This document shows, piece by piece, positions 5,048 through 42,114 of a stretch of 64,000 nucleotides of DNA. Each line of letters starts with the position of its first letter. Position 1 is the stretch's first letter. Location: IMG/VR virus record IMGVR_UViG_3300021468_000001, positions 1 to 64,000 of that record, one strand, 5' to 3'. Both the position numbers and the translations under genes were made by a program. The notes beneath the pieces were generated by a model. That model saw only the letters and a list, made by a program, of their open reading frames with translations, searched no databases and was not told the origin of the DNA. This stretch comes from a virus.

Positions 5048-5067
5048 AATTCATTCCTCTCAATTCG

Positions 5068-5993: not shown

Positions 5994-6016
5994 AACAAGA
6001 CCTCCAACTAGTTTGT

Positions 6017-6624: not shown

Positions 6625-6626
6625 CT

Positions 6627-8427: not shown

Positions 8428-9359
8428 CGCGCGACCTCCTCAAAAAAAGGACTTTGAATTTGCCAGCAGAAAACCCTGGCGATTTTTGTTGCCAACTTCC
8501 CCATTCTCCAACTCGTGGGATCTCGGTCAATTAGCATCACTACTTCACTACAAGAGTTCTGGTTGCCCCGTCCAATTGACTGAATTATCCTAATCATGCT
8601 TTTGCTCGGCGTTGCAAGAATTACACCTTCCAGATTTTGCGGATGAAACCCCTCACTGGCAAATGAATAAGTTGTTACAAATGGCCCCTCCAACTTACTT
8701 GGGTCCAATTTTCTCCGCGGCTCCCACCATTTGGCAGCTCCATTTTTCTCAAGAATCGAAGCATGTGCTCGCAACCGTGTTAGGATTAGAACTATTTTCC
8801 CTTTGGTTTTCATCGAAAGCGCAATGTCTTTAATAAGCTGGTTCCTCGCCTGGTCGTTGGCCCTTTGCTGGTCGTTATGCCACCTTGCCCAGGTTCCCAT
8901 GACCTTAAATTTTACAGGTACCGCTCTTCCAGCGCAACGTAATCTTCGTGCTTGCGGGAAAAAGAACCCCAGTTTTTTCAAGAATCGGTATGATTCTGTT
9001 GTTAGCATCGCCGTTAGACCCAACACTCTTTTCCCTGCTCCAACCGCTTGCTTCACGATACTTTGATAACTATCAGATTGAGCATGGTGGATCTCGTCGA
9101 TTGCCACAAATCCCCTGAACGTGTATTTCCCTCGCGCGAACGCGGAGAGAACGTTTGCCGCAATCCCGTTTTGGGCTGCTCTCCGAACCCACTGCTGCGC
9201 GATATTTCTCCTATGAGTGATTATCGTGATGCTTTGATACCCCAAGTTTCTAGCCACATCAAAAGTGGTTTGCGTTTTGCCCCACCCGGGCGGAGCCAAA
9301 AGGATGACCCGGCCGAAGCGTCGTAGTAACTCGGCGACTCGCGGGATAACGCTATCCAT
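8415..9359 (-). CDS. Compact SF2 helicase / DNA-dependent ATPase
   Basis: 314 aa from the ATG at 9359; a TTG at 9374 is an alternative and neither has a strong ribosome site. Motifs: Walker A APPGWGKT (about residue 24), Ia ITHRRNIAQQW, DEIHH (about 90), LTAML, then the second lobe with FASEGFHPQNLEGVILATPS and IQSIGRGNQ. It is shorter than typical SF2 enzymes and has no N-terminal or C-terminal accessory domains. It is the second helicase in a row. The pair plus the DUF669-like protein suggests a replication or recombination module. Confidence 0.85.
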   Translation of the reverse strand: MDSVIPRVAELLRRFGRVILLAPPGWGKTQTTFDVARNLGYQSITIITHRRNIAQQWVRRAAQNGIAANVLSAFARGKYTFRGFVAIDEIHHAQSDSYQSIVKQAVGAGKRVLGLTAMLTTESYRFLKKLGFFFPQARRLRCAGRAVPVKFKVMGTWARWHNDQQRANDQARNQLIKDIALSMKTKGKIVLILTRLRAHASILEKNGAAKWWEPRRKLDPSKLEGPFVTTYSFASEGFHPQNLEGVILATPSKSMIRIIQSIGRGNQNSCSEVVMLIDRDPTSWRMGKLATKIARVFCWQIQSPFFEEVARCRR

Positions 9360-9648
9360 AGCGGCGAATCCCAAGCGCCCTGCAAATCGCCAAAAGTCCC
9401 TGAACTATCCTTTCCGTTCCCTCTTTCCAGGCGAGTGGCGGTTGGGGTTGTTTGCCGCTGTTCCAAAAGAGAAAGAGGCTCGCGATTGCGTCGGCTGCCT
9501 TGACACGTTCATCGAACTCCATTCCCTTACCATCCATTGAGACAAACTCTACCTCTTCCATTTTCCCGCTCTTGAGAATTCGCCGCTTCAATTCTTTGCA
9601 CTTCTCACACTTTGACGTGGTAAAAATGAAAGTTCGTGGCGTTCCCAT
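9352..9648 (-). CDS. Thioredoxin/glutaredoxin-like protein
   Basis: 98 aa. The ATG at 9648 was chosen because GGAGGGGCAATAA precedes it. FIFTTSKCEKCKELKRRIL at about residues 7-25 is a glutaredoxin-like beta strand followed by CxxC (CEKC) and a helix. EEVEFVSMDG could be the second strand. No cis-Pro motif is obvious, so the fold may be truncated. It could supply reducing power to a ribonucleotide reductase or modify a host protein, but neither partner is seen nearby. Confidence 0.6.
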   Translation of the reverse strand: MGTPRTFIFTTSKCEKCKELKRRILKSGKMEEVEFVSMDGKGMEFDERVKAADAIASLFLFWNSGKQPQPPLAWKEGTERIVQGLLAICRALGIRRYG

Positions 9649-26966: not shown

Positions 26967-27389
26967 GTGGGGCGAAAGGTAAGGGGGTTAGGGCGCGAGG
27001 TAGTTGAGGCGGTGATAGGGGGGATAGAGCGCGGGATAGAGGTAGGGGACATGGTACAGTTAGCGGTGCTGTGGGGCGAGTTATGGGAGGCGGAGGTAAG
27101 GAGCATGGGGGCAGTGAGGGCGCGGATAGGGGAGGTGAGGGAGCGGTTGGAAGGGGAGGTAGTAAAGCGGTTAGGGGAGGCAGAAGAGGTAAAAGGGAGG
27201 ATGTTAGAGGGGTGTGGGCGGATGATACAGGTGATGGCAGCGCGGCGGTATTTGATGGCGGAGCGTGCTGAGGCAGTAGAGCGTGGCGAGTGGAGGGCGG
27301 ATGGGCGGATAAAGGAGTGGCGCAAGATAGTGGGGGAGGTAGGGCGGTGCGCGAAGAAGAAGAATGGGGGCAAGGCAAGTGACGAATGA
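26967..27389 (+). CDS. Putative small terminase-like protein
   Basis: 140 aa. GTG at 26967 after AGGGAGGAGACGAGAC. All-helical with a coiled coil (VRARIGEVRERLEGEVVKRLGEAEEVKGRM) and a basic tail (CAKKKNGGKASDE). It overlaps the large terminase start by 26 bases, the usual place of the DNA-recognition subunit, but no HTH is obvious. The coding strand is nearly free of C (codons AGG, GGG, ATA, TTA, GTA), very unlike the structural genes that follow. Confidence 0.5.
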   Translation: MGRKVRGLGREVVEAVIGGIERGIEVGDMVQLAVLWGELWEAEVRSMGAVRARIGEVRERLEGEVVKRLGEAEEVKGRMLEGCGRMIQVMAARRYLMAERAEAVERGEWRADGRIKEWRKIVGEVGRCAKKKNGGKASDE

Positions 27390-30192
27390 GGACAAGTTAC
27401 GGCGATTGGTAGGGTATCGGCCGGAGAGCAAGGAAGAGTTGTGGTTGTACTACAAAGCGGCGTTTGGGATGGGGCTGGTGCGAGAAAGTGTCTGTGAGGC
27501 ACACAGTTCGCAATTAGATTTTGCGTGGGAGATGGTGCGAGGCGGTGCGGGGAACATAATAGCGCTGGCATGTCGGCATGGTGGGAAGACAAGCACGGCA
27601 GCGGCAAGTACGTTGGTGCGGGCAGTTACGCAGCCTGATCTTGATGGATTTGTAATGAGCGGATGTGTTGCACCGTGGCAATTTTTGGTAGTGCAGGAAG
27701 GTGGGATGGTGTATTGCAAGCCGCTTGGTTGGGCAAAGGCAGGTGACGTGGTATGGACAAAAGAGGGATGGCGGAAGGTTAAAGCAGTAATGGTAAAGCC
27801 TGGGATAGAGGAGTTTTCGCGGCTTCGGACCGCGATAGGAGATATAACGACGACCGGCGACCATCTAATATACATAAAGGATGCAATAGATGGGGACCGG
27901 AAGTGGGTTCCTGCGAAGGATATAGGGCGTTTGCAGGTGCCGCTAGTCCCGACGCGAGGGGCTGACGGCTCGAGATTGTTACCATCGGATGAAAACTCCA
28001 CGCTCGATCCATATCTGGCTGGAGTGATGGCAGGTCTTCCGGTAGACAAAAAGAGAAGTACAAGCGAAATGCTTTATGTCAGGTGGGGGTGGCGGGCTCC
28101 TGTGGGCATGAAGAGCAAAAAGGGATTGGCTTGGCGAGCTGAGCGCGAGAAGGCATCATGCTTGGGGGCACTAGGGTATGCGGCAAAGATACTGAAAGGC
28201 GTGGGGGTCTATCTTCACATATATGAATGTAGTGGCGAGAAGGAAGGGTCTTTTAGCACAACTGTACCGGTAGCTTCGATTCCTCGAGCGTATCTCGAAC
28301 AGGACATTCGTTGGTATTGGCGGTACGATCGCGAGTGGCGGAGGCGCTTTCTGGAAGCATTTTTTGCGGTCGCATTTCGGAAAACTTCGTATGGGAAGGC
28401 GGGATATTTTCGGAGAAATGCTGGGGATGCTATATATTTTAGGGCAAGAGGATTGCCGCAAATCCCGGATCTTGTGAACGAACCTCTTTGGCGGCAGGAG
28501 ATTGCTAAGGCAAGCATAATCCTTTTGCTGAGTTTGGACGTTGCCGAGTTGTGGATGATCCCTACATGGCCGAAGTTCCCAACATGGATGCCATATAGTA
28601 GTCAGTTTCCTGCATTGGTTTGGTTTAGGCCGGGGTCCTCAATACCGATAACAGATATGCCGTTTAGGTCAGCAGTTTTCAAGGATAGCACGCTTTACAA
28701 TCCTGTTTTAATAGAACCGGCTCCTAGCGAGGTTTTTATAGGGAGGGCTGGGATAAAGGACAAGAGAAAGCGGGGCGATCCATCGGTATTTTTTGATCTT
28801 GAGATTGAGGGCGCCGACAACTTTATGATTCTACCTGGTTGCATCGTTCACAATTCAAAACGGCAGGCACGAAGATTTTATCAGTTTTTTGAAAAGATGT
28901 CGCGGAAGTCTTGGTTTGAAGATGATTTTGATGGTAGGCCGGAGAAGGAGGAAGTGCGATTCAAAACCGGGAGTCGTGTAGAGATTCTTGCTACTTCGGA
29001 AACGTCAGCGCGATCTCCTCATGGGAACTTAATTATTGCCGATGAAGCAGATGCAATTCCATCAGGCGTCTATGAATCGTTGAATTTTGCGGTTGACCTA
29101 ACAGACGAAATATCAGATAGGCGCGCCCTGTTCGTTATTACGTCAACGCAGCATAGGCTTGGTGGAAATATCTCGCGATTGCTCGAGAGATTAGAAGAAC
29201 AGGGATCGAAGCATACTCGCGTTTTTCGATGGTGCATGAGGGAGGTGATTGCTCCATGCCCGCGCGATGCGGTTTGTGCGAATTGCGACTTGTTCAATGA
29301 TTGTGGAGGTGTAGCAAAAGAAAAGCAAGACGGGTTTCTAACGAGAGAAAAACTGGTTTCATTGAAAGAACGACTGGTTAGTAAGGATGCGTGGGATCGC
29401 GAGATGATGCTGAAGCCGCCTCGAGCAGGCGATACCGCTTGTCCTCTTTTCAGGGATGGATTTCCTTATGTCTATCGCTTCGATGCGATGAAAACACTAC
29501 CTTCTTTTCATGGCTGGGATTTTGGAGTTTCGACGGCGATTGTGTTTGCCAATTTTGATGAGAAGAAACAGCGAGTTTTTGTCTTTGATGAGCGGCTTAT
29601 TCAGCATAAAGACCATCAGCACGTTGTTGATGTTGTGAATCGGATAGATGCGTATCACAGACTACCTAACCCGAAATCGTTTGGAGATCCGCATGGCGGG
29701 CAAGATATTCTTACATATGCACGTCTTGGGCATGTAATTTTGTCATATATGGGGCGGAGAAAACAGAGTAGACTAGATGTTCTAAACTGGTTTATGGAGT
29801 ATCGGGACGACGGCAAGCCCGGGATTGCAATACATCCGCGGTGCAAACAGCTAAGGCATGAATTGATTGTTGCTACTAGGGGTGACCTTATTCAGTATGA
29901 TCCGGTTTCAAAGAAGAGACTTGTAGTTGCAAAAGAAGGATTCCATATCCTAAATGCCCTAATATATCTTTTGGATGGGATTTATATGGGCCTTGATAGA
30001 AGCCGAGAGGTGTTGGCAAGAGAACGGAGAAAAGCGATAAATGCATCTTTGGGGACTGTTCCTCATCCTAATTGGGGAAAGGGCAAGAGAATTCATAATG
30101 AAGGTTCTCCGCCCTTTATCATCGAGCCTGGTGCCCCGCCTTCTCTTGATGGCATTGATGAAGGACTTGACCTTAATGCTGGCTTAGGTTAA
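27364..30192 (+). CDS. terL: Terminase large subunit, intein-containing
   Basis: 942 aa, of which residues 101-497 are an intein; the mature terminase would be 545 aa. The ATPase centre has Walker A ACRHGGKT (residues 69-76) and Walker B LIIADE (556-561). The C-terminal RNase-H-like nuclease shows HGWDFGVSTAIVF and GDPHGGQD. A cysteine group (CPRDAVCANCDLFNDC) lies between the two domains. The enzyme docks on the portal, pumps DNA into the head and cuts it. The intein splits it after 'FVMSG' and before 'SKRQARRFYQFFEK', at the conserved 'S.RQ' helix just after Walker A. The start overlaps the upstream gene; a GTG at 27379 is an alternative. Confidence 0.9.
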   Translation: MGARQVTNEDKLRRLVGYRPESKEELWLYYKAAFGMGLVRESVCEAHSSQLDFAWEMVRGGAGNIIALACRHGGKTSTAAASTLVRAVTQPDLDGFVMSGCVAPWQFLVVQEGGMVYCKPLGWAKAGDVVWTKEGWRKVKAVMVKPGIEEFSRLRTAIGDITTTGDHLIYIKDAIDGDRKWVPAKDIGRLQVPLVPTRGADGSRLLPSDENSTLDPYLAGVMAGLPVDKKRSTSEMLYVRWGWRAPVGMKSKKGLAWRAEREKASCLGALGYAAKILKGVGVYLHIYECSGEKEGSFSTTVPVASIPRAYLEQDIRWYWRYDREWRRRFLEAFFAVAFRKTSYGKAGYFRRNAGDAIYFRARGLPQIPDLVNEPLWRQEIAKASIILLLSLDVAELWMIPTWPKFPTWMPYSSQFPALVWFRPGSSIPITDMPFRSAVFKDSTLYNPVLIEPAPSEVFIGRAGIKDKRKRGDPSVFFDLEIEGADNFMILPGCIVHNSKRQARRFYQFFEKMSRKSWFEDDFDGRPEKEEVRFKTGSRVEILATSETSARSPHGNLIIADEADAIPSGVYESLNFAVDLTDEISDRRALFVITSTQHRLGGNISRLLERLEEQGSKHTRVFRWCMREVIAPCPRDAVCANCDLFNDCGGVAKEKQDGFLTREKLVSLKERLVSKDAWDREMMLKPPRAGDTACPLFRDGFPYVYRFDAMKTLPSFHGWDFGVSTAIVFANFDEKKQRVFVFDERLIQHKDHQHVVDVVNRIDAYHRLPNPKSFGDPHGGQDILTYARLGHVILSYMGRRKQSRLDVLNWFMEYRDDGKPGIAIHPRCKQLRHELIVATRGDLIQYDPVSKKRLVVAKEGFHILNALIYLLDGIYMGLDRSREVLARERRKAINASLGTVPHPNWGKGKRIHNEGSPPFIIEPGAPPSLDGIDEGLDLNAGLG
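27664..28854 (+). mobile_element. Intein in terL with decayed LAGLIDADG motifs
   Basis: 397 residues, from Cys1 (terL residue 101) to Asn (497), followed by Ser+1. Splicing blocks: A (CVAPWQF..YCKPLGWAKAGDVVWTKEG), B with TGDH (TxxH, residues 164-167), F (FFDLEIEGADNFM) and G (CIVHN). The middle has 'DPYLAGVMAGLP' and 'RRRFLEAFFAVAF' where LAGLIDADG motifs should be, without the catalytic Asp in either. It should still splice, but the homing endonuclease is probably dead. Confidence 0.88.
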
Positions 30193-30224: not shown

Positions 30225-31772
30225 ATGCCGAGTCGAAAAGTGTTTCCGCCTCAACTCCTTCCGGAAAAGTCTAAGGGAGTTCTCAAAAGCATAGAGGATG
30301 GAACTGATGAAAGAAAAAAAGAGCGCCTTTTGCAAGACTATCAGAAGATGCGAGACTGTCCTACCATTAGGTTCTGTTTTTTTCTTATTTCCTTGCCGAT
30401 TCGTAGAGCAAGAATTACGTATCAGCATCCAGATGCCGAAATACGAGAGTTTGTGAACAGGAACCTCGCAATTATTAGGCGAAACCTTACTGAGCATATC
30501 CTTGCTGGTCTTGAATTTGGGTTCGCACCATTCGAGAAACGATTTCAGGTAATTGACTCGCGAGTTTTTTACAAAGAGTTTTTGCCGCTTCGTCCCTGGC
30601 ATGTGAAAGTCTTGACAGATGGAGTATCTTTCAAAGGAATGAGGCTTTTTAAGCAGCCGATTTATCATGGTGAAGGCGGTTCATTTGTTGAGATTCCGCC
30701 GAGAAAAAGCTTTATCTATACCCATCAATTCAGATTCATGGACTTTCGAGGCGAATCACTCTACCGTTCAGCGCGGATTCCTTGGCTTCTTTGGAAAGAA
30801 GTGGTACGACTTCACGCGCACACCATGCAGGACCATGCACTTCCGCCGCTTGAGGCGAGAGCGCCTGATGCTGTTCTTACCATAAACTATGATGATAGGG
30901 TTGAACAAATAACTGCTCGCGAGTTGATGATAAGGGTAGCAGAGGCGATTCGGTCGAGGTCGTCCTATTTGCTGCCTCCCGACGAGGATTATGGGATTGA
31001 GGCGAAACAAACTGCGCGACAGTGGGACTATGAGAAAGATTACGACCTTTGTGAGCGGATGATTGCTCAATCTTTATTGACGCCGAGAGACCTTTTTAGG
31101 GAAGGTGGCGGATCCTATGCAAAAGCGTACGTCCAGTCGCATTGGTTTGCTGGGATTGTAGATGCTATAGTCGAGGAAATTATATCTTTCGTGTTCTCAT
31201 TTGCGATAGTCCCCATCGTCCGCTATAACTTTGCGAAATACCAGGATCCCGCAATTCATGATTTTGGCAGGCTTTCGTATGAAAGCTTGTCACTGAAAGA
31301 CATTGACTTTCTTCAGAAACTTGCGTTGACGATGGTAAAAGAAGGGTTTGCAGATGAAGTACCGGAACCGGCAGAAATTTTGAAGCGCCTTCACGTACCA
31401 ATCAAAACCCGCCCGGGCAAGCCGTTGCTTTCGATGCCAATATCAAAGGCATCGCTTTTCGAGAGTCTGAGAAAAGAACTATTTGCAGAGATTGCCCGAA
31501 CGAAAGAAGAGCTTGGGTTCTCCGAATACATTTCTGTTCCACCTCAAGTGATGGCATTCTTGAAAAATTTTGCCGGGAAAACAATGGACCTCGTTGAGGA
31601 AAGTACGGATCGCGATGCCGTCTTGTCGGATGCGTTGCTTAAGGCGCATTCACTTGCTCGTGCTTTGACGTATACTGCTCTTGGTTCTAAGGTCTGGAGG
31701 GTTGATACTCATGACGATTCTGGATCTATTGAAAGTCCCGCCAGAGAAATACTCGCCTCAAAAGATAAGTGA
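30225..31772 (+). CDS. Portal protein (DUF935/Mu gp29-like)
   Basis: 515 aa. ATG at 30225 with GGGGAGGATAACTTAG upstream. It opens with 'DCPTIRFCFFLISLPIRRARITYQHPDAEIREFVNRNLAIIRRNLTEHILAGLEFGFAPFEKRFQV', the usual portal wing start, followed by 'FRGESLYRSARIPWLLWK' and the helical stem region (residues about 300-360). It forms the dodecameric ring that holds terminase, neck and tail. The last 62 bases overlap the next gene. The extra C-terminal helical part ends SALS-type 'DDSGSIESPAREIL'. Confidence 0.82.
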   Translation: MPSRKVFPPQLLPEKSKGVLKSIEDGTDERKKERLLQDYQKMRDCPTIRFCFFLISLPIRRARITYQHPDAEIREFVNRNLAIIRRNLTEHILAGLEFGFAPFEKRFQVIDSRVFYKEFLPLRPWHVKVLTDGVSFKGMRLFKQPIYHGEGGSFVEIPPRKSFIYTHQFRFMDFRGESLYRSARIPWLLWKEVVRLHAHTMQDHALPPLEARAPDAVLTINYDDRVEQITARELMIRVAEAIRSRSSYLLPPDEDYGIEAKQTARQWDYEKDYDLCERMIAQSLLTPRDLFREGGGSYAKAYVQSHWFAGIVDAIVEEIISFVFSFAIVPIVRYNFAKYQDPAIHDFGRLSYESLSLKDIDFLQKLALTMVKEGFADEVPEPAEILKRLHVPIKTRPGKPLLSMPISKASLFESLRKELFAEIARTKEELGFSEYISVPPQVMAFLKNFAGKTMDLVEESTDRDAVLSDALLKAHSLARALTYTALGSKVWRVDTHDDSGSIESPAREILASKDK

Positions 31773-33495
31773 CAGCGAACTCAAATATGATTTGACGTTG
31801 GCTGTGTCTTGGGGTACGAAAGGCGCTCCGGACATAAGACAGAAGGCTCAGAAATACGCGCTCAAGATCATCCCTGAACTTCTGAAACGAGGGAAAGTCA
31901 CATTTCATTTTGAGTCCTGGAAAGAAGCGCCGCGCAAATTTTTGGTCGAAATCTTCAAGCGCCTTTTTACTTCAGGGATCTATCTTGTTCCCCCGCATGG
32001 CGAGATGATCTACAAGGGCCGAAAGACGGCAATTGTTAAGGTCAAACCAGATCAAAGACTCCCGGAAACGTTTTCTGTTCTCGTGAGCGGGAAACACGCT
32101 TTCGGGTTCATACGAGCGAAGGAATCTCGTGAGATTACCGTCGCCGAGTTCCAACGGCTCAAGAAGTATCACCGCATCACCGAAGATGAGCGAAACTCGT
32201 GGTGGCCGAACAAGGAGAAATTCCAGTACTATGAGATTCGCGATTTTTTGCCTTTTGAAAAGCCTCATCCGGTTGAGGTCGTTCATGGGATCCAGACGAG
32301 GATAAAGAAAGTGAGTTTCGACGATGCGTCGTGGGATGATTTCGATGAAGCAGGGGTTGTTTTTCTGGAGAGGCGGAGTCGAATTTACAAGCCATTTAAC
32401 TTCTATATGGGATCACATTTCCAGTATGGACTTCTGAAAAGCCTACTGCGGAAGCAAGACTGGGACCTCTACTGTGAGCCGTTCTGTGGTTCGGCCAGCG
32501 TTTTTTGGGGTCTCCGCCGCGACATTGGAAATGATTTTAAGGCAATCCTTTCCGATTTACACCCGACTGTCATTTTCATATTTCGCTTTCTGAAAGGGTT
32601 GACGCCTGAACAAGCAAAGCGCGTCCGGCAGAAGAACTGCAAGTTCAGTGTTGCTCGATACAAAGAATTCAGGAAATCGAAATTTCAAGATCCTGTCGAT
32701 GAGTTCTTCAGGGCGATCTATGTAGCGCATTTTTCATTCGGCGGTTTGAGAGTTGTTCCTGAAAAGGCTTCTTTGATAGTTGCCGAAAACAGGATATCTA
32801 CTTCTTTAGCAATAAAGAGTTGCGAAAGAAGGCTCAGGTCAACGATCGAAAGGCTTGAATATTTTCGAGACGCGTTGAAAAACACCACTGTTTTACAGGA
32901 TGATGCTCTCGTCGTGATCGAAAAGTTCAATTCGAGCAAAACATTTTTCTACATCGACCCGCCATATCAGAAATGGTCTATGAAGGATGAAGGGGGGAAA
33001 GATGGTTTGATTGCAAGGATCCCGGCCTTCAATCGCGTTTTGAAATCGATCAAGGGCCGGTTCATCATGGAGACTACAGGGGAAAGTCCAATTCTACATG
33101 GGATCAAAGGCTTTCATAGAAAGAAAATCGTGCGCAAATCGCCACTCAAATCAGAGAAGAATCTTTCGTTTGTATTTCTTTCTAACTTCCCCATCGATCC
33201 GAAGCTTTCTGTTGTCTTGGATGATGAACCGGAAGATCTTGATGCTTTGCTCGAACGGCTTTCCGAATTGAGTCCGTTCGAGCTGATTTGCATTCACGGA
33301 TGGTTGCATGGCGAGGCTGATCAAGAAGATCCAATACCGCAGCATATTGCGATGGCGCATCTTCTTCTTGTTTCCAGAATGAAACAGATAGGAATGGAAC
33401 ACCGCTGGGAATCGTTTCTTGATGAAGAAAGCGAGATGCTTGCCGCGAAGGCACAGATGATTACTGGCGCTGATTTGGAAGGGGAGGCTTACTGA
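31711..33495 (+). CDS. Dam-type (D12) DNA adenine methylase with N-terminal domain
   Basis: 594 aa from the ATG at 31711 (CTGGAGGGTTGATACTC upstream; a TTG at 31681 is weaker). The second half is a D12-class N6-adenine methylase: EPFCGSASVFWGLR (AdoMet motif, about residue 260) and FFYIDPPY (catalytic, encoded at 32947-32967). The first 220 residues are a separate domain including 'TFSVLVSGKHAFGFIRAKESREITVAEFQRLKKYHRITEDERNSWWP', possibly ASCH-like. The last 120 residues (FELICIHGWLHGEADQEDPIPQHIAMAHLLLVSRM) recall a phage ligase-associated helical tail. It lies between portal and ligase, overlapping both, so it belongs to the packaging cluster. Confidence 0.82.
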   Translation: MTILDLLKVPPEKYSPQKISDSELKYDLTLAVSWGTKGAPDIRQKAQKYALKIIPELLKRGKVTFHFESWKEAPRKFLVEIFKRLFTSGIYLVPPHGEMIYKGRKTAIVKVKPDQRLPETFSVLVSGKHAFGFIRAKESREITVAEFQRLKKYHRITEDERNSWWPNKEKFQYYEIRDFLPFEKPHPVEVVHGIQTRIKKVSFDDASWDDFDEAGVVFLERRSRIYKPFNFYMGSHFQYGLLKSLLRKQDWDLYCEPFCGSASVFWGLRRDIGNDFKAILSDLHPTVIFIFRFLKGLTPEQAKRVRQKNCKFSVARYKEFRKSKFQDPVDEFFRAIYVAHFSFGGLRVVPEKASLIVAENRISTSLAIKSCERRLRSTIERLEYFRDALKNTTVLQDDALVVIEKFNSSKTFFYIDPPYQKWSMKDEGGKDGLIARIPAFNRVLKSIKGRFIMETTGESPILHGIKGFHRKKIVRKSPLKSEKNLSFVFLSNFPIDPKLSVVLDDEPEDLDALLERLSELSPFELICIHGWLHGEADQEDPIPQHIAMAHLLLVSRMKQIGMEHRWESFLDEESEMLAAKAQMITGADLEGEAY

Positions 33496-36362
33496 TGGGG
33501 TCCGACCAAAAGAAAATTCATGCTTCGGAGTTCTTTGCGAGACTTCCTTTTTATAAGATTGTATTCAAAGACTATCTGAAGTTGGTCGGGTCGGTGGCCA
33601 TTTCCGGGGCGGGGAACGATCTTGACGTTTTGATTGACGGAGAGCCGTTGCGCGCTGTTGAGTTTAATTTGAAACGAATGTTCCCGCCATCTATCGCAGA
33701 ACGCCTCCATGTTTTTCACGATCAAGGGCCTTTCACATCTTATATCCCCCTTGCAGATCTGGTTTTGCAATTCAAACCGCCTATGGTTGAGTCGCTTTCT
33801 GTTGGCAAGTCGCTTGAACCGGAGGGTAGAAAATCTGCTCGTGAAGACAAGGTTGTTCCTTTTCGGTTTTTCTTTCCGCAGAAGACTAGAGCAGGATACC
33901 ACAAGCGTGAGTTTTTTACGGTCGAAGATGCACTGGAAGTTGCTGAGTCAAAATGGTACCCGTGGGTCGGAGAAGAGAAACTAGATGGAATGCTGTGGGA
34001 GGTTCATAAAGTAGGAGACCGGGTTGAGGTCTTTTCTGAAGATGGACGGGAGGTTAATATCAACCAGGCTGGTCCTTTGATAAACGAGATTCGCTCGCAG
34101 CCAGAAGATTTTGTTGCGGTTGGAGAATTGGAGACTTGGCTTGCTCCTGATGCGGCAAAAAAGTTTGGTGAAGAGGTAACTTCGCAAAAAATGTTCAAGG
34201 GGAAGGTTCATGTGGGACGAGCAAAAACTACAGGATACATCCACTCAAGTAAATTTGATCGTGAGTTTGCCGAAGGGCTAAGGCTTACCTTTCATACTCT
34301 TGTTTGGTGGGGGCGCGACGGAAAAGATGATTTCCACAAGAAGCCAGAGATTGAAAGGCTGAAAATCCTTGATAGAATTGTAAAAGAGGGAGAGCACATC
34401 CGAAAGGTTTATTGGCGACTTCTAAAACGCCCAAAAGATGTAAGGCGGTTTTGGGTGGGTGTGTTGCGCGAGCGGGGTTATCTCGAAGGAATCATGCTGA
34501 AGCCGGCAATGGAACGATACTATTTGAATCCTAACCAGGGTCACTGGGTAAAGGTTAAAAAACTATACGAATTGAAAGTTCGTATCCTTGCCCGTGAACG
34601 CGGGAAGACAAAAGAGGGTGTCCCCCTGAACGTTTATCGTTTTGCCTGTGCAATCGAGGGCAAGAAGGGGAATCCGGTTTGGATCGGGTGGACATACCAT
34701 AGGAGGTTCAAAAAAGTTCCGAAGGTTGGTGATGTAATTGAAGTTCGCTTCCAGAATCTTAACAAGTACACCGATCCCAAAACAGGGAAAATTTGGATGA
34801 ACTGGTGGTGCCCGGTTGTTGTGTCCGATGAGCCGGAAAGTGCACAGCCAGACTCCGTCGTAATTGCCGAAAGAATGGTTGCGGCAAGCAAGGGCGACGT
34901 TTCGACGAAGCGCCCACCCAAGGATGTGAGAGATATAATGCGGGGGGTTGGTGTCGAATTCCAAATGACATCTGATGAGGTACTCGAAATTTTGGAAAGG
35001 ACGCCGCCCCTCGATTCTACAAACCTTGCAAAAGTTAGTAAGAATCCCGCGATGCCAAAAGAGATGGTGGAGGCAATAGAAAAAGCGCGCTCGTTTTCGG
35101 TTGACAAGCAGGTTCAGGTTGCAAAATCTAGAAATTACGGAAAGATTCCGCCGCACTTTGGAGTCTTTCAACTCCATTTCAGAGGTAAAAGTTTGCACAT
35201 TGACTTTAGGTTTCTCCTGCCAGATCGGGCCAGTTGGTCAGGAAAGACAATCCTTAACCAGATTGAGGGCGTTCCAAGCGAGCCCGTTACGGCGATTGAA
35301 GAAGCGAAACGTTTTGCCAATATGATTCTAAAGAAAAAAGCCGAAGTGTCGAAATTTTATCCGGGGATGCCATCTGGCCAGGGAGTTGTTGTTATTCCAA
35401 AGTTTGAAGGGAAGTCTTCGTTTTTGGAATGGCTGGTTTTAGGTGCAGCGAAAGTAGATTGGCCGCACGCAGGCGCAACAAAAGAGTTTCCTGGCGTTTT
35501 CTACCCGCTAGATTTTGGATGGCATATGCAGACTGTAGATAAGCCTTGGTTTGAAGAGCATTGGATTTTCTTTAAGCACTTTCGGGGTAGATTGGTATTT
35601 CGTGCGCTACCGGCGAGCAAGAAGTATAAAGGAAGGATCGGGAAAGCGCCGATCTTTTGGCGAGCGCACTTTGCCAATCCTGAATCCCCGCCGTATGTCT
35701 TTTCGCGCTCTTTCTTTGATGACCCAGAAGATTGGGTACCCGTTGACTCTGCGCTCCCGCCTCATTGGGAGGCCGTTGTTCCGAAAGACCTCCGTTGGTG
35801 GGAACAATCGTACTCAAAAAAGAAAAGGCTGTCGATGATTGTCGAAGCGCATAATGCATTGATCGAGCAGGGATACTTAAAGGGAAGGCCTATTTCACTA
35901 TCTTCTAGTCTTGAGCGTGCAAAGTGGGTGCTCCATGAAATTTCATGGAAAGGGCCTATTCATGTGCGAGGGGAGTGGATAAGTACATATTACTTGCGTC
36001 TTTTTGGCCCGAATGGCATCGAGACGTTTGCGGGAAGCGACAACCCCTTACTGGCTGCAAAGGGAACGAAAATCCCAATGCGGAAACTTCCGGCTGATGA
36101 GGTACCCTTACCGCCACAGGGGAAGGATCAGGATGATTGGCTTCGGTTTGAAGGGAAAATTCCCCCGAAGAGGGCGGACAACCCAAATTTGGAAATTGAA
36201 GCTGACTGCTCTATCATCGAGTCTGGGGTTGCCGAAATAGAGCGTGATGCTTCACTTCGACGAATTCTTTTAAGACTTGAAGGAGAGAACTTAAAAGGAT
36301 ACTATACTCTACAGCGAGAAGGGAAAGGTTCGCCGCTCTTCTCGTTTGAGAAAGTCAAGTAG
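33495..36362 (+). CDS. Nucleotidyltransferase - ATP-dependent DNA ligase - 3'-phosphoesterase fusion
   Basis: 955 aa. The TGATG overlap and GGGGAGG fix the start. Domains: (1) residues 20-95, Pol-beta-type nucleotidyltransferase (VGSVAISGAGNDLDVLID gives GS...DLD, then PLADLVLQF); (2) about 130-370, ligase adenylation domain with motif I EEKLDG (Lys162), III VGELETW, IV EGIMLKP, V WVKVKK; (3) about 370-445, OB fold (VGDVIEVRFQ); (4) about 550-750 and to the end, LigD-type 3'-phosphoesterase (FQLHFRGKSLHIDFRF, FYPLDFGWHMQ, RRILLRLEGENLKGYYTL). Bacterial LigD joins broken ends with Ku; here no Ku is seen. It could seal packaged ends, repair damage in the virion or act at the portal. All catalytic motifs look intact. 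Confidence 0.82.
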   Translation: MGSDQKKIHASEFFARLPFYKIVFKDYLKLVGSVAISGAGNDLDVLIDGEPLRAVEFNLKRMFPPSIAERLHVFHDQGPFTSYIPLADLVLQFKPPMVESLSVGKSLEPEGRKSAREDKVVPFRFFFPQKTRAGYHKREFFTVEDALEVAESKWYPWVGEEKLDGMLWEVHKVGDRVEVFSEDGREVNINQAGPLINEIRSQPEDFVAVGELETWLAPDAAKKFGEEVTSQKMFKGKVHVGRAKTTGYIHSSKFDREFAEGLRLTFHTLVWWGRDGKDDFHKKPEIERLKILDRIVKEGEHIRKVYWRLLKRPKDVRRFWVGVLRERGYLEGIMLKPAMERYYLNPNQGHWVKVKKLYELKVRILARERGKTKEGVPLNVYRFACAIEGKKGNPVWIGWTYHRRFKKVPKVGDVIEVRFQNLNKYTDPKTGKIWMNWWCPVVVSDEPESAQPDSVVIAERMVAASKGDVSTKRPPKDVRDIMRGVGVEFQMTSDEVLEILERTPPLDSTNLAKVSKNPAMPKEMVEAIEKARSFSVDKQVQVAKSRNYGKIPPHFGVFQLHFRGKSLHIDFRFLLPDRASWSGKTILNQIEGVPSEPVTAIEEAKRFANMILKKKAEVSKFYPGMPSGQGVVVIPKFEGKSSFLEWLVLGAAKVDWPHAGATKEFPGVFYPLDFGWHMQTVDKPWFEEHWIFFKHFRGRLVFRALPASKKYKGRIGKAPIFWRAHFANPESPPYVFSRSFFDDPEDWVPVDSALPPHWEAVVPKDLRWWEQSYSKKKRLSMIVEAHNALIEQGYLKGRPISLSSSLERAKWVLHEISWKGPIHVRGEWISTYYLRLFGPNGIETFAGSDNPLLAAKGTKIPMRKLPADEVPLPPQGKDQDDWLRFEGKIPPKRADNPNLEIEADCSIIESGVAEIERDASLRRILLRLEGENLKGYYTLQREGKGSPLFSFEKVK

Positions 36363-36378: not shown

Positions 36379-38043
36379 ATGTCGGATCTGGACCTGGTCT
36401 TGAACCTTGGCGAGAGCGTGGAGTTTGAGGAAGTTGAGGGCGGGGCGCTTGTTGTAAAAAGGGTCCCGGCTCTCATTGAGGGTACGCACAAAGGACACGA
36501 GTTTACACCAGATATTATCGAAGAAACAGCCAAAAATATGCAGGATGTTACCGATGTGCAGTTGTTCAAGTCTCACGAAGAAGCGGAACAGAACCTAGTT
36601 GGTGGGGCAGTCAATTTCACTTTCGGTGAAAGTAATGGCAAGAAGGCGGTGCTTGCTGATCTTGTGATTGGCGATACCGATACCGCCACTCTCGTTAAAA
36701 ACCTCAAGAATTCTGGACTGAAAAACCTGGCAATCTCTCCGAGAGTTGACGTTTCTGAAAACAAAATCCTCCATGTTGCCCTTGTTTTGGAGCCTGCACA
36801 GGGTGAAGATGTTAGGCTAAAGGCTGACAAGGAGCCCGATGAAGAAGATCCCGAAGAAAAACCGGATGAAGAGCCGAAACAGAAAGAGAAGAAAATAGAG
36901 GAGAAGAAAGACGGTTCGTGGCCTGCATACACCCCTTATAAAACGTGGTGGGAAAATGTCAAGGCTATAATCTCTAAGACGCAGAACCCGGAGGAGGCGA
37001 TAAAGAAACTGAAAGAGCTTATCGAGAAAGCAGAAAAGGCTTGCCGGGGGAAAAACCAAGAGCGTCCATATCCGAACGTAAAAGCGGCGATGTCTTCGGG
37101 CGTTCAGGTTGTGGAAATGTTACCTTCGCCGTCAGTGAACTTTCAGCAGGCAACTGACAGTATCTATCGGGTCTTCCTTTTTGAAGAAGGTAAATATGTT
37201 TTTGGTGAAGACCGGTACCTCGTGGCGAACGCCAAAACATTCAAAGACTGGAAAGAAAGCCTTAGCTTGCTCAAGAAGGTTCCTGTTTTTCTTGGCCATC
37301 CGAAGAAGGGTGAGGAAAATGCTCCGGCCGTTGTTGGGTGGTTACTTGATGTCGATACAGAGGGCAAAAAGTGTTACGGGGTGATGGAAATTGTCGAAAA
37401 AGAAGTTGCCGATGCGATTGATAAAGGCAAGATTCTCGGAGTTTCAGTAGGGACAATGCCGCTGCGCCGAACCGAAGATGGTAACTTTATTTCGAATGCC
37501 CTCGACCATGTTGCCCTAACCGTTGATCCTGTTCTGAGGCAAACATTGGAGGAGGGATTTGAGAAGTTGGAACGCTATGTTGCTTCTGAGGAAGAGAAGG
37601 AGTATGTCGAGGGGTCGCTGGAAAGAATTGTTGATGAAGAAGAGGTAAGCCGTCTCAGAAGGGAAATCGAGGAGCAAAAACAGAAACTTAGCGAGGTAGT
37701 GAAGCGCCTTATGGCAACTGAAAATGAAAAGGCGAAGAGGGACCGAGAAGCAATAGATGAGCTTTTCAATAAGGCCATTGCTGAAGGAAGGATAACTCCG
37801 GCAGAAGTGACCTTGCGAAAGCCGGTTTACTACCAACTCCTTAACCTCAGGCGTCCCGTAAAAGTCGGGGATGAGGAAATCTCAGTTGTGGAGATGCTTC
37901 AAAGGGAGTTGGCGGTTCGCAAATCGGAATCGCTTGAGCCGGTCAACCAGTCGCAGGAAGCAAAGGCGTTCAATATCGAGAGCCTAATAGGGCTTCCACC
38001 GGATGAGTTCGTTTCGAAATTGAGGGATGTTTTCGGGGATTAA
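36379..38043 (+). CDS. Prohead protease/scaffold with tandem protease domains
   Basis: 554 aa. Start after TTTGGGGG. Two related domains: residues about 25-145 (FKSHEEAEQNLVGG.. LAISPRVDVSENKILHVALVLEPAQ) and about 300-390 (FLGHPKKGEENAPAVVGWLL.. LGVSVGTMPL..NALDHVALTVDP). Both show a His then a Ser in the DUF2213-like/prohead-protease pattern. An acidic linker (about 150-180) and a coiled coil (RLRREIEEQKQKLSEVVKRLMATENEKAKRD, about 420-450) follow, the usual scaffold region. One domain may be catalytic and the other structural. It lies immediately before the capsid gene as expected. Confidence 0.72.
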   Translation: MSDLDLVLNLGESVEFEEVEGGALVVKRVPALIEGTHKGHEFTPDIIEETAKNMQDVTDVQLFKSHEEAEQNLVGGAVNFTFGESNGKKAVLADLVIGDTDTATLVKNLKNSGLKNLAISPRVDVSENKILHVALVLEPAQGEDVRLKADKEPDEEDPEEKPDEEPKQKEKKIEEKKDGSWPAYTPYKTWWENVKAIISKTQNPEEAIKKLKELIEKAEKACRGKNQERPYPNVKAAMSSGVQVVEMLPSPSVNFQQATDSIYRVFLFEEGKYVFGEDRYLVANAKTFKDWKESLSLLKKVPVFLGHPKKGEENAPAVVGWLLDVDTEGKKCYGVMEIVEKEVADAIDKGKILGVSVGTMPLRRTEDGNFISNALDHVALTVDPVLRQTLEEGFEKLERYVASEEEKEYVEGSLERIVDEEEVSRLRREIEEQKQKLSEVVKRLMATENEKAKRDREAIDELFNKAIAEGRITPAEVTLRKPVYYQLLNLRRPVKVGDEEISVVEMLQRELAVRKSESLEPVNQSQEAKAFNIESLIGLPPDEFVSKLRDVFGD

Positions 38044-38058
38044 AAAGGAGGAACCGAG

Positions 38059-39147
38059 ATGATTCAGGTTGCTAAGGATGCTTTTATCGTAAGACCGTTT
38101 GAGGACCTTCTGAGTGTAGCAAATTTCGGTGAGGAAGTTATGGCGCAGTTTGCAAACTACACCCAGGCTATGAAAAAGGCAGACCTCACCGACAAGCTGA
38201 TTCAGCCGCTCTTTTCGGCGCGGACTATTCAGGATCTTCAAACGACATCTGCGCTTCTTGACCTAGCGCGAAAGATGGTCAAGATTAGCTGGAAGGGGCA
38301 GGGAGACCCCCTTCAGGTTCCCTATATCGACTATCTGAGTGGATCCGGTGTTTCTGAGGGAACCTCAACTGAGGGTTCTGAGGAAAAACTTTCGGTGACA
38401 ATGAAGTCGGTGGCTCTTGCCGAAAAGGCCCATTCAACGGCCTGGACGAGACATGCAGGGCGGCTGGCGCGATACTCTGTGCTGGAAGCGTCTCGTGAGG
38501 CGCTCAAAGATTGGGCAGTTCGAAAGATAGAGGCTGATATTCGTACCTCGCTTCAGACTTCGATCACTCAAATCATACGTCCGAATGATAAAGGTTCTGA
38601 TGAGGCAATGACCGCTACCGATGTTCTGGACACCGAGACGATTCGTCAGGCGCGGTGGATTCTTTGGAAGAAGAGGGCGGCCAGTTTCTCGCCTAAGGAC
38701 GTGGATACCGAGGGTAAGATGAAAAAGTCGATGGGGACGTACGTTCTCATTTGCCCGGGCGAGTTGCTTAAAGACCTCGAGGATGATACCGATTTTAAGA
38801 ATGCTCAGGAGAAAGCTGCCGACCTTGCGCGTGGATTCTCGCCGTGGGAAGGCGATATTTATCTCTATAAGGGCGTTCTTATCGTGAAGGGCGATCCGAG
38901 AATCTGGACGACTGAGACCATTTCGGCCGGGTACTCGTACAAGATGGCTCGTGCCCTAATGCTCGGGTCCGACGCTTTTGTCTTAGGCCTTGGCCAGCCG
39001 GAAGGCGAAAACTTCCTGACCGTGACACCCGAGGAAAGCGATGGTGGCCGTTTGCAGCGGCTGGTTCTGTCCATCATATACGGAGTCGGGGTTATCCGGG
39101 CGACTTCGGGTGTTTGGATTCATGCGGCGACGCAAGACCTAATCTAA
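38059..39147 (+). CDS. Major capsid protein
   Basis: 362 aa. The strongest ribosome site of the late arm (AAAAAGGAGGAACCGAG), as expected for the most abundant protein. The segment 'KGQGDPLQVPYIDYLSGSGVSEGTSTEGSEEKLSVTMKSVALAEKAHS' and the C-terminal 'IYLYKGVLIVKG...YKMARALMLGSDAFVLGLGQ' fit the N4-gp56/P22-like branch of HK97-fold capsids. It follows the protease/scaffold gene and is followed by a strong terminator, which isolates its transcript. Confidence 0.75.
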   Translation: MIQVAKDAFIVRPFEDLLSVANFGEEVMAQFANYTQAMKKADLTDKLIQPLFSARTIQDLQTTSALLDLARKMVKISWKGQGDPLQVPYIDYLSGSGVSEGTSTEGSEEKLSVTMKSVALAEKAHSTAWTRHAGRLARYSVLEASREALKDWAVRKIEADIRTSLQTSITQIIRPNDKGSDEAMTATDVLDTETIRQARWILWKKRAASFSPKDVDTEGKMKKSMGTYVLICPGELLKDLEDDTDFKNAQEKAADLARGFSPWEGDIYLYKGVLIVKGDPRIWTTETISAGYSYKMARALMLGSDAFVLGLGQPEGENFLTVTPEESDGGRLQRLVLSIIYGVGVIRATSGVWIHAATQDLI

Positions 39148-39243: not shown

Positions 39244-42114
39244 ATGGACTTTGTGGAGGTTCTAGTCTTGGAGCTTTTCGTCGTAGAAAATATAAGCCCG
39301 GTTGCTCACACCTTGAAAGACTTTCAAGGGAAGCGAAAAACGATTGGATTCTCTCAGAAAGCTATAGTTTCGGCTGAAGTAGCATCTCTTTTAAGGCGGA
39401 CTGGTCAGTTCAAGATTCATGGAGTAGATTGGGATAAGATTGTTTCGGTTCTTGAGAAAGACATATCAGAGCCGACAGCAATCCAAAAACTCCAGAAATT
39501 TCGCCCGCCAACCGCTGGAAGTTTTGTCTTTGCAGTATTTCCAGAGGAAGAAGATATATCAATCCAAAGGTGGTTCTTTTCACAACTCGTTCGTCTATCG
39601 AGGGGCAATGATTCGCTTTGTGTTTACGCAAGAGACCTGCCAAAATTTGCCAGATTTTACTTTGGAACTCACAATATCGGGTGGATTTTTACTGAGAGTT
39701 TCTTTGGCAAGGTCGATGTGGTCATTGGGTTTTCTCAAAGCAATATAAGGAAATATTGTAGCAAATTTGGCGCGAGGGGGCTTCAAATATCGCCATCCCT
39801 GCTTCCAGATTGGGAAACTTCCGACCAGTTTCTTAATTCTCGAAGTAGCGGTAATAAAAACACGTTCCTTCTTTTGAGCAAGGATGTCCCGCCAAAATGG
39901 GTACAGGGATTTTCGGATTCTTTGAGAATCGAACACGTGAAGCCGGATGATGCCGAATGGATTTTTGATGCTGAAAGGGCAAGGCTTCTGTCTAGGGCTT
40001 TAATCTTTTTGAATCTTGAGAAGACGACCCTGCCATTCTATGAAAGAGAGGCAAAGCTGTGCGGGGCCTATGTTGTTTCAGATGCAAATCTGTTTTCGGA
40101 TATTGGTCCCGATGTGGCGCGCAATGAAAAGCCGCACGACTTGGTTGAGAAAGCGAGAACTATCCGCCCAGCTAGGCCGATCTCTCTCTCTTCGATTACC
40201 ACACTCGACTTGCTTCCAAAACGATCTACCCCTTCTCGAACCAAGGAGTATGACGTTCTAATTGTTCATTCGCCTTCATTGTCTGGGCGTTCCGGGGCAG
40301 ATAAAGCAACTATTGCGCTGAAAAAGCACTTGAGTAAAGAATGGAATGTAGGGCTGATGATTGCATCAACAGGGGAAAAATCCGGCCCGCTTGCCGAGAT
40401 AGCAGATTTTTGGGCACCGCTTTCTAAAATCGTATCCGATCATAATAAGTTTCCAGTGGCAAGTCTGTACATTGTGTCAGATTCTCTTATTCCTGCTGTC
40501 TCGGAAGTAGTGCCGAAATCGTCTATTCTTGGATATTTGCATTACTTGGGCGACCTGGCTGACGACAAAAACCGCGCCATCGAAACGCTTAAGGCAGGCT
40601 TCCTTCAAGGGGTGAAGATTCTTTCTCCATCCCGCTGTCTTGCTGAGAAGCTAAGAGAGATGTACTCGCTTGATGTTGAACACTGCGTGCCGAAGTATGA
40701 CTTCCCGCAAAAAAAGTCGCCTCCGCCTTCGGGAAAGAATAGAGATATGGTTTTTGTCCCGGTTCTTTATAACTCGGCGAAAGATCTTCAATTCTTACAC
40801 GAGATTGCAGAGTTGGTTCCTGAGGCTAACTTTGTTGTCGGAGATTGTCGGGCTCCGAAGTCGGCTATCAAGGCAAGAAATGTGAAGGTCCAATATTTTG
40901 AAAACGTACAAAATGCCTTTTCAAGGGCAAAGATAGTTCTTGTATTTAGTACAATTTCTACAACCCTTTCTATTTCTGCATGGGAGGCTTTAGCGGCCGG
41001 GATCCCGGTAATCGCCGAGGATAAAGTCCCATTTAAGGATCTCTTCGACCGATTTCGGCTTCCGAGAAACCCGGATATATGGGCGTCAGTAATTCGGAAG
41101 AATCTTAATCTCGAAAGTTATGCGTGGGGTGGAACGCGAAGGGCATGTAGAAGTGATTTCATGTCTTATATGGAAAAGGCAGACCGCTGGGACATATTGG
41201 TTTCTGAGGCAATTTCAAGGCGGGAAGTCGGCTTCAGTGTTCGTCCGTCGCCTTATGCTGGCGTTCAGAATGCGCTGGAGTGCATGAAACATGTTATTGT
41301 AAATGAGAACTCTGACATCGTAGTCGCATCTGTTTTGGACCATGATGCCCCTCATGGGTGTATAGGGTTTATAGCGTCATCCCTATCGCAACTCGCACTA
41401 GATGGACAGAATGACTTGATTGGCGAGTGTGCATCTTCATTGTCGCGCGGGAGGTTTTCTGCAATCATCACATTCGATACTGCAATTGCACGTCTTTTGA
41501 ATATGATCGTCGGAGATGAATTTGCGTTTGCACTGCCCGTTCCAATCAAGCCGATTAGAGGAATTGCGCGCCTTAAACCGCTAAAAACATCCATTCTTTT
41601 CAGGTCAAACGCACCAAGAAAAGATTTCTTTTTCAACTTGCTTTTGGCGGCTGAGGCGGGGGTCCAGGCCGTTGAGGTTTCAGATTCAGTTCCGCCGGAA
41701 GCATCTGCGATTGCCCAACGAATGGGGGTCATCCTTCGATTTCACCCGCTTTACTCGGGTGATGCCTATAGGAGTTTTTTGTCAGAAGTCAAGGTTGGCT
41801 TGCAGGTCACGCTATCGGAGTCTTTCAATTATACTGCCTTCGATCATTTTCAGGTAGGTACGCCTTGTCTTGTCTCCGAGCAGACAAGATGTATTTTCGA
41901 CTTGCCCAAAAGATGGAGATGGCTGATAATCAACCAAAGAGATCTTTTAGGCGCAGTTGATGTTTTCAGGGATGCAGCTAAAATGACAGAAAGGGATAGA
42001 CTTTCTCTTGCAAAGGATGCTCGGAAGGTGGCTGATGCGCTAAATATACGATTTAAGGCTGCTTTTTCTAGAGTGATGAGGTTGGTTCAGCGTAGAGCAA
42101 AAATATTAGCGTGA
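39244..42114 (+). CDS. Giant multi-domain GT-B glycosyltransferase in head module
   Basis: 956 aa. At least two GT-B type domains are visible. Residues about 335-690 start 'YDVLIVHSPSLSGRSGADKATIALKKHL' and have the donor-site 'AWEALAAGIPVIAEDKVPF'. The C-terminal part (about 690-950) has 'VTLSESFNYTAFDHFQVGTPCLVSEQ', a classic GT4-like E..N...D....G.P site. The first 330 residues may be a third, decayed GT. They follow a 60-residue start (VEVLVLELFVVENISPVAHTLKDFQGKRKT) that recalls small head proteins. It probably transfers sugar to a virion protein or cell-surface glycan. It lies between capsid and connector genes and has its own terminator/promoter pair. Confidence 0.75.
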   Translation: MDFVEVLVLELFVVENISPVAHTLKDFQGKRKTIGFSQKAIVSAEVASLLRRTGQFKIHGVDWDKIVSVLEKDISEPTAIQKLQKFRPPTAGSFVFAVFPEEEDISIQRWFFSQLVRLSRGNDSLCVYARDLPKFARFYFGTHNIGWIFTESFFGKVDVVIGFSQSNIRKYCSKFGARGLQISPSLLPDWETSDQFLNSRSSGNKNTFLLLSKDVPPKWVQGFSDSLRIEHVKPDDAEWIFDAERARLLSRALIFLNLEKTTLPFYEREAKLCGAYVVSDANLFSDIGPDVARNEKPHDLVEKARTIRPARPISLSSITTLDLLPKRSTPSRTKEYDVLIVHSPSLSGRSGADKATIALKKHLSKEWNVGLMIASTGEKSGPLAEIADFWAPLSKIVSDHNKFPVASLYIVSDSLIPAVSEVVPKSSILGYLHYLGDLADDKNRAIETLKAGFLQGVKILSPSRCLAEKLREMYSLDVEHCVPKYDFPQKKSPPPSGKNRDMVFVPVLYNSAKDLQFLHEIAELVPEANFVVGDCRAPKSAIKARNVKVQYFENVQNAFSRAKIVLVFSTISTTLSISAWEALAAGIPVIAEDKVPFKDLFDRFRLPRNPDIWASVIRKNLNLESYAWGGTRRACRSDFMSYMEKADRWDILVSEAISRREVGFSVRPSPYAGVQNALECMKHVIVNENSDIVVASVLDHDAPHGCIGFIASSLSQLALDGQNDLIGECASSLSRGRFSAIITFDTAIARLLNMIVGDEFAFALPVPIKPIRGIARLKPLKTSILFRSNAPRKDFFFNLLLAAEAGVQAVEVSDSVPPEASAIAQRMGVILRFHPLYSGDAYRSFLSEVKVGLQVTLSESFNYTAFDHFQVGTPCLVSEQTRCIFDLPKRWRWLIINQRDLLGAVDVFRDAAKMTERDRLSLAKDARKVADALNIRFKAAFSRVMRLVQRRAKILA

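What the first reader, a model, noticed from the sequence alone, without database searches (positions are those of the whole stretch)
33495..36362. Nucleotidyltransferase, DNA ligase and 3'-phosphoesterase fused in the packaging module
One 955-aa protein joins a Pol-beta-type nucleotidyltransferase (GS..DLD), a complete ATP-dependent ligase with OB fold (KxDG, EGIMLK, WVKVK) and a LigD-type 3'-phosphoesterase (LHIDFRF). The set parallels bacterial LigD but uses a different polymerase fold and stands between portal and scaffold genes. Phage ligases normally sit in replication modules. A virion-associated or portal-coupled end-repair enzyme is possible: it could trim and seal genome ends during packaging or after injection. 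I recall no phage described with this order, but cannot search.
Basis: partly seen in the sequence, partly recalled or inferred. Interest (0 to 1): 0.85.

Follow-up and report, generated by a model that had tools for sequence, protein, structure and literature searches.

The report
Virus head-gene-linked DNA end-repair enzyme
A virus, probably one that infects archaea, encodes a single large protein with a DNA-ligase domain, two DNA-end-cleaning domains and a small nucleotide-transferase domain, placed among the genes that build the virus head; about 58 related gene versions keep much the same arrangement, which suggests, but does not prove, that these viruses carry a DNA repair kit into the host with their genome.

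Summary
The 955-aa ORF is real. In 50,697 annotated phage records only ANMV-1, an ANME-archaeal virus, has a relative, filed as "ATP-dependent DNA ligase". Scans of IMG/VR and GTDB found 71 loci (58 clusters at 90%), usually NTase-ligase-PE-PE, in one ORF or two adjacent ones. In 46/58 a recognised head gene lies within three ORFs or is fused; in 41/58 it is the head protease or capsid gene. Several relatives fuse the enzyme to the head protease, others fuse its ASCH-like domain to the portal. Ligase lysines/glutamates and PE H-H-D residues are invariant, so catalysis is likely. But this is not LigD: no AEP polymerase, a minimal NTase, ligase motif Ia Arg always acidic, PE His84/Tyr88 replaced. 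The window also lacks ligase motif VI. Best reading: a polyvalent-type protein, probably packaged and injected, that repairs and (with the adjacent methylase) protects entering DNA. Packaging and substrate are inferred; the window virus's host is unknown. New variant of a known kind.

The parts
33495..36362 (+). 955-aa NTase-ligase-PE1-PE2 protein
   Evidence: ORF; domain profiles
33516..33803 (+). Minimal nucleotidyltransferase domain, res 8-103 (G32, D42, D44; candidate third acid D76)
   Evidence: relatives' fold
33858..34841 (+). ATP-dependent ligase adenylation + OB domains, res 122-449 (K162-x-D164-G165, E211, E331-G...K336, K353/K355); motif Ia Arg and motif VI absent
35154..35804 (+). 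PE1: LigD-type phosphoesterase domain, res 554-770 (Q559, H561, H568, D570, R572; S642/W646 at the His84/Tyr88 positions)
35901..36359 (+). PE2: second PE-superfamily domain without H-H-D, res 803-955
   Evidence: (3p43 E 3e-8)
31681..33495 (+). 604-aa partner ORF: ASCH-like N-domain (res 24-216, homologous to the N-terminus of fused relative L004) + D12 N6-adenine methyltransferase (res 252-431); shares TGATG stop/start with the ligase ORF. First codon TTG, true start probably ATG at 31711
30225..31772 (+). Mu-type portal protein
   Evidence: PF06074 E 2e-22; phrog_113
27364..30192 (+). Terminase large subunit with intein (about res 101-499)
36379..38043 (+). Head-maturation protease / scaffold
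   Evidence: phrog_976 E 1.5e-9
38059..39147 (+). Major capsid protein
   Evidence: PF13252 E 6e-12; phrog_334

Best explanation
It is a polyvalent-type multi-enzyme of head-tail viruses, at least part of which infect archaea. The protein is made with the portal, protease and capsid, is probably incorporated in the procapsid (in some relatives as a fusion with the head protease, which could cut it free), and enters the cell with the genome. There it would work as an end-healing and sealing kit for incoming DNA: PE1 cleans 3' ends (3'-phosphate or ribonucleotides) using a metal held by H561/H568/D570, the ligase seals nicks or joins ends through K162-AMP, PE2 and the ASCH-like domain bind nucleic acid, and the NTase adds a nucleotide to an end or an adenylyl group to a protein. 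The adjacent D12 methylase would mark the DNA against restriction. Shown by sequence: the domains, the invariant catalytic residues, the conserved head-module position and the fusions. Inferred: packaging, injection, substrate and each activity.
For: Ligase (K motif I 52/52, E III 54/54, EG..K IV 54/54, K V 54/54) and PE1 (H42 62/62, H48 64/64, D50 64/64, R52 63/64) residues are kept across deeply divergent loci; NTase D-x-D 50/50 and 51/52. 46 of 58 clusters have a recognised head gene within three ORFs or fused; 41 have the protease or capsid gene downstream or fused. Head-protease fusions: L035 (PF14550 E 3e-18), L046/47, L050, L088-90, L003. Portal-ASCH fusions in seven contigs. Directly downstream of the portal in ANMV-1, L008, L010, L013, L029; of MuF in L057, near it in L006, L064, L068, L072, L073. 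DNA methylase fused in L003, L006, L068/72 and adjacent in the window. Closest solved ligases are archaeal DNA ligases. Precedent: P1 DarB, a virion methylase acting in cis on injected DNA, and packaging-linked polyvalent proteins (PMC5512222). L018 carries an intein immediately before ligase motif I, the usual kind of place for inteins in active enzymes.
Against: No virion proteomics exist for any member. Gene position could reflect co-transcription only. 12 of 58 clusters show no recognised head gene nearby, some beside tail genes (L021, L023, L027) and some on short contigs. The ligase motif Ia Arg is acidic in 53/53, motif VI varies and is lost in the window, and PE His84/Tyr88 are replaced, so the chemistry may differ from LigD. 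L035 lacks the ligase. The NTase fold match is weak (E 0.08) and its third acid varies (42/53 acidic).
Confidence: 0.5

Rival explanations
1. The enzyme works inside or at the procapsid during packaging: it trims, heals and seals nicks or ends of the concatemer next to the portal and terminase.
For: Adjacency to portal and terminase, portal-ASCH fusions and head-protease fusions.
Against: I know of no precedent for a ligase in the packaging motor; methylase, MBL and ASCH-like modules are not packaging functions; in many loci the neighbour is the protease or capsid gene, or tail genes, rather than the terminase.
Confidence: 0.13
2. It is an ordinary viral DNA repair/replication enzyme made in the infected cell; its place in the head module is a matter of operon history.
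For: DNA ligases and D12 methylases are common viral enzymes; it is the only ligase-profile hit in the window and the rest of the record.
Against: Replication and repair genes of the window are elsewhere on the other strand; the head-module position is kept in 46/58 diverged clusters with repeated fusions to structural genes.
Confidence: 0.17
3. It repairs RNA (for example host tRNAs cut by defence nucleases) rather than DNA; PE, NTase and MBL domains would be RNA end-processing enzymes.
For: ASCH and some MBL-fold domains act on RNA (general knowledge); L021 ligase also hits mRNA_cap_enzyme (E 5e-6) and RNA_ligase (E 0.003); LigD PE has 3'-ribonuclease activity (PMC8656161).
Against: Solved-structure hits are DNA ligases, Pfam gives DNA_ligase_A_M far ahead, and the fused methylase is of a DNA type.
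Confidence: 0.13
4. In this particular virus the ligase has decayed and the protein is mainly a DNA-binding or structural internal protein.
For: The window lacks the KxDGxR Arg, motif VI and several consensus residues (S642, E687); PE2 is degenerate.
Against: All strictly invariant residues of NTase, ligase and PE1 are kept in an intact 955-aa ORF; the other losses also occur in relatives.
Confidence: 0.07

Closest known systems
ANMV-1 virus 'ATP-dependent DNA ligase' AJP62006 (KP703175, putative virus of ANME archaea)
   Same: Full-length relative with the same four domains (about 30% identity) directly after a portal gene and before a MuF-type protein
   Different: Not described beyond the one-line annotation in what I could read; lacks the methylase/ASCH partner ORF
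Polyvalent proteins (Iyer et al. 2017, PMC5512222), e.g. P1 DarB
   Same: Large modular multi-enzyme proteins in portal-terminase phages, with fusions to virion proteins, DNA methylase and NTase domains
   Different: In the passages read, no DNA ligase or LigD-type PE domain is reported (ligase mentions concern RNA ligases); typical hubs (zincin MPTase, ART, SNF2, ArdC) not seen here; the paper says almost all examples above 1,000 aa come from bacteria
Bacterial LigD (NHEJ multi-tool, PMC8656161)
   Same: Combines nucleotidyl transfer, 3'-phosphoesterase and ligase in one chain; PE metal triad and Arg52 kept
   Different: No AEP polymerase; order NTase-LIG-PE-PE; PE His84/Tyr88 replaced; ligase closer to archaeal DNA ligases; no Ku looked for
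Archaeal LigD-type PE proteins (3p43, 3p4h)
   Same: PE2 profile E 3e-8 and 6e-6; PE1 motif alignment
   Different: Solved as stand-alone PE chains, not viral; here two copies follow a ligase
PolX-ligase fusion of Phaeocystis globosa virus (PMC5537341; known from its abstract only)
   Same: Pol-beta-superfamily domain and ligase-like domain in one viral protein
   Different: Giant eukaryotic virus, Pol-beta-like core, base-excision repair; no PE mentioned

Membership tests
Bacterial LigD | AEP-type polymerase domain | tested here: not met
   No such Pfam hit; N-domain is a minimal NTase
Bacterial LigD | PE metal triad His42-His48-Asp50 and Arg52 | tested here: met
   Window H561, H568, D570, R572; 62/62, 64/64, 64/64, 63/64 in the family
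Bacterial LigD | PE phosphate-site His84 and Tyr88 (essential in Pseudomonas LigD, PMC8656161) | tested here: not met
   Gln/Glu (64 of 69; window Ser642) and Trp (67/68)
Bacterial LigD | Ku partner | not tested
   No dedicated Ku search made
ATP-dependent DNA ligase superfamily | Motifs I, III, IV, V | tested here: met
   K162, E211, E331-G...K336, K353 invariant in the family; PDB ligases E 4e-28
ATP-dependent DNA ligase superfamily | Motif Ia Arg and motif VI R.DK | tested here: not met
   Glu182 (E/D in 53/53); window EPES where relatives have REDK
LigD PE superfamily (PF13298) | Profile similarity to PE structures or Pfam model | tested here: met
   PE2 E 3e-8; relatives' PE ORFs LigD_N E 2e-6 to 1e-4, below the gathering score
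Pol-beta superfamily minimal NTase (MNT-like) | G[GS]...DxD plus third carboxylate and fold | tested here: inconclusive
   DxD invariant, third acid 42/53; Foldseek prob 0.91 but E 0.08; window's own NTase poorly modelled
DNA polymerase X | Palm with fingers/thumb/8-kDa domains | tested here: not met
   Only a ~100-aa domain; no Pol X hit in Pfam or PDB searches
Polyvalent proteins (phage type) | Multi-domain protein encoded among portal-terminase virion genes | tested here: met
Polyvalent proteins (phage type) | Fusion to MuF, portal or other virion proteins | tested here: met
   In relatives only: S78/XkdF protease, portal-ASCH; not in the window itself
Polyvalent proteins (phage type) | Hub domains of that network (MPTase, ART, SNF2, DarB-type methylase) | tested here: not met
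   None in Pfam scans; D12 methylase only. Hence 'works like', not filed as a member
Polyvalent proteins (phage type) | Physical presence in the virion | not testable with these tools
   Needs proteomics

The most novel reading that the evidence does not exclude
A DNA end-healing and sealing machine (NTase, ligase, tandem phosphoesterases, with optional methylase, ASCH-like and metallo-beta-lactamase-fold modules) is a widespread, unnamed virion component of head-tail viruses of archaea and perhaps of bacteria. It would be carried in the capsid, released by the head protease and delivered with the genome as a portable end-joining kit.
Probability: 0.42. Interest if true: 0.87.

Novelty: new variant of a known kind. 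Interest (0 to 1): 0.72.

Why it matters
I know of no established case of a virus carrying its own ligase and 3'-end repair enzymes into the cell with its DNA. If true, it would show how viruses of slow-growing, often hot or deep-sediment archaea could cope with nicked or damaged genomes before any gene is expressed, and it would add DNA repair to the known set of injected virion enzymes. It also uncovers a large family (71 loci) hidden behind a single 'ATP-dependent DNA ligase' annotation, with a distinct ligase and PE active site that can be tested biochemically and may supply new thermostable enzymes.

Tried and rejected
Single-sequence scan of viral contigs found nothing; two-sequence and larger alignments were needed. 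phmmer of the window protein alone against PDB was uninformative. Full-length AlphaFold (pLDDT 75, pTM 0.44) left the window's NTase at pLDDT 26-62; Foldseek lists were filled by ligases, so PE rests on sequence profiles and not on fold search. I first took D88 for the third NTase acid (not conserved); the wider alignment points to D76. The fused C-terminal protease of L003 has no Pfam or PHROG hit; only weak similarity to the window protease (E 0.005), and its 'S78' label comes from using that stretch itself as a seed, so it is not independent evidence. DNA polymerase X, true LigD and an anti-phage defence system (PADLOC hits only for the methylase) were rejected. Literature searches found no description. 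The 12 clusters without a recognised head gene were not all annotated by hand.

Full report
OBSERVATION. The window is part of a 74,682-bp virus record. ORF 33495-36362 encodes 955 aa. The methyltransferase ORF in front of it ends in TGATG, sharing bases with its start. The gene order on the + strand is terminase large subunit (27364-30192, with an intein), Mu-type portal (30225-31772), D12 methyltransferase (31681-33495), this protein, head-maturation protease/scaffold (36379-38043), major capsid protein (38059-39147).

DOMAINS. Pfam alone reports only the ligase. Profiles built from the relatives place four domains: NTase 8-103, ligase plus OB 122-449, PE1 554-770, PE2 803-955. These profiles were made from the same family, so independent support is what matters. 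The ligase profile finds archaeal DNA ligases in the PDB (4eq5 E 4e-28, alignment running through the OB domain). The PE2 profile finds the archaeal LigD-type PE structures 3p43 (3e-8) and 3p4h (6e-6), and Pseudomonas LigD PE 3n9b weakly (0.025). PE1 aligns to the same chains over the H..H.D.R motif but below significance; PE ORFs of relatives L017, L018, L019 hit Pfam LigD_N at 2e-6, 1e-5 and 1e-4, below the curated cut-off. The NTase has G32, D42, D44 and a candidate third acid D76; a model of the relative L015 has the beta-alpha-beta order, and its best folds are MNT-type nucleotidyltransferases, at modest significance. So the NTase is a minimal domain, not a DNA polymerase X.

RELATIVES. 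Among 50,697 annotated phage records the only full relative is ANMV-1, a putative virus of ANME archaea (PMC4372165, gives its archaeal hallmarks and does not discuss this gene). Pattern scans of IMG/VR and GTDB contigs gave 71 loci with PE1, in 58 clusters at 90% identity. Four loci lie in archaeal MAGs (Methanosarcinales, Methanophagales, Euryarchaeota); these contigs may be viral sequence binned with the host. The host of the window's virus itself is not known. The common order is NTase-LIG-PE1-PE2, as one protein or as two adjacent ORFs (NTase-LIG, PE-PE). Variants: ligase after PE (L049/L050), ligase absent (L035), NTase placed just before PE (L043, read by eye), extra MBL-fold, D12 methylase and ASCH-like modules, and a third PE-like repeat (L017, L018). 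The window's methylase ORF carries the same N-terminal ASCH-like domain that is fused to the enzyme in L004 (E 6.5e-23), so the two window ORFs look like one functional unit, split. The name ASCH-like itself rests on one weak Pfam hit (L014, E 0.024).

CATALYTIC RESIDUES. Across non-duplicate loci the ligase lysine of motif I is kept in 52/52, the motif III Glu in 54/54, motif IV Glu, Gly and Lys in 54/54, and the motif V Lys in 54/54. PE1 His42, His48 and Asp50 equivalents are invariant and Arg52 is 63/64. That strictness argues for working enzymes. But the family has its own signature: the motif Ia Arg of ligases is acidic in 53/53, and PE His84 and Tyr88, essential in Pseudomonas LigD (PMC8656161), are Gln/Glu and Trp. 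The window protein also lacks the Arg of KxDGxR and ligase motif VI. The phrase 'complete ligase' is therefore too strong for the window, and activity must be measured.

VIRION LINK. In 46 of 58 clusters a recognised head gene (portal, MuF, protease, capsid, terminase) lies within three ORFs or is fused; in 41 the protease or capsid gene is downstream or fused (gene identities). L035 ends in an XkdF-type S78 peptidase (PF14550, 3e-18); L046/47, L050 and L088-90 also carry a protease match in the same chain, and L003 possibly does (its own C-terminus served as a seed there). The ASCH-like domain is fused to the portal in L015, L048, L051, L060, L066, L069 and L071. By the reasoning used for polyvalent proteins (PMC5512222), such links indicate packaging and delivery. 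This remains inference: no proteomics exist, and 12 clusters lack a recognised head gene nearby.

MECHANISM AND RIVALS. I judge an injected DNA repair-and-protection enzyme most likely (0.5), ahead of an ordinary repair enzyme sitting in a late operon (0.17), action during packaging (0.13), RNA repair (0.13), and decay to a structural role in this virus (0.07).

COMPARISON AND NOVELTY. It works like LigD in bringing healing and sealing together, but it is not LigD: there is no AEP polymerase and two PE residues are changed. It fits the context definition of polyvalent proteins but not their usual domain set; in the passages of the polyvalent paper that I read, ligase mentions concern RNA ligases only, and the paper states that almost all examples above 1,000 aa come from bacteria. 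I class it as a new variant of a known kind. The counts above depend on the peptide patterns used and are not an exhaustive census.

Noticed in passing
window 27364-30192 (protein res about 101-499): The terminase large subunit carries an intein of about 398 aa (starts at Cys101, ends ...CIVHN before Ser500); Pfam Intein_splicing E 0.004.
   Followed up: partly
L018:2-4786: A 364-aa LAGLIDADG-type intein sits immediately before ligase motif I (QKKYDG).
   Followed up: partly
L015:500-2152, L048:4084-6405, L051:2997-5309, L060:2668-4263, L066:838-2427, L069:6050-7864, L071:4233-5894: Portal proteins fused at the C-terminus to an ASCH-like domain.
   Followed up: partly
L012:647-6919: Tail-fibre-like genes lie between the NTase-ligase ORF and a shortened PE1 ORF; insertion or assembly artefact not resolved.
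   Followed up: no
L042, L043, L044, L048, L051, L058: The ligase appears split between two ORFs, with a D12 methylase fused to the first half and the NTase lying just before PE1 in the second.
   Followed up: partly
window 39244-42114: 956-aa glycosyltransferase gene directly after the major capsid protein gene.
   Followed up: no
BFVD A0A516LT18: Unnamed 827-aa viral protein whose model aligns over 739 columns to the predicted structure (E 3.5e-22); possibly another viral ligase-PE protein.
   Followed up: no
window 4055-9374 (-) and record 63827-67421 (-): Replication/repair genes: ResIII helicases, ERCC4 nuclease, N6/N4 methylase, PDDEXK nuclease, CHC2-Toprim primase; host of the virus not established.
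   Followed up: partly
L002:5868-9368: ANMV-1 MuF-type protein with a very long Cys-rich N-terminal repeat region, next to the enzyme gene.
   Followed up: no
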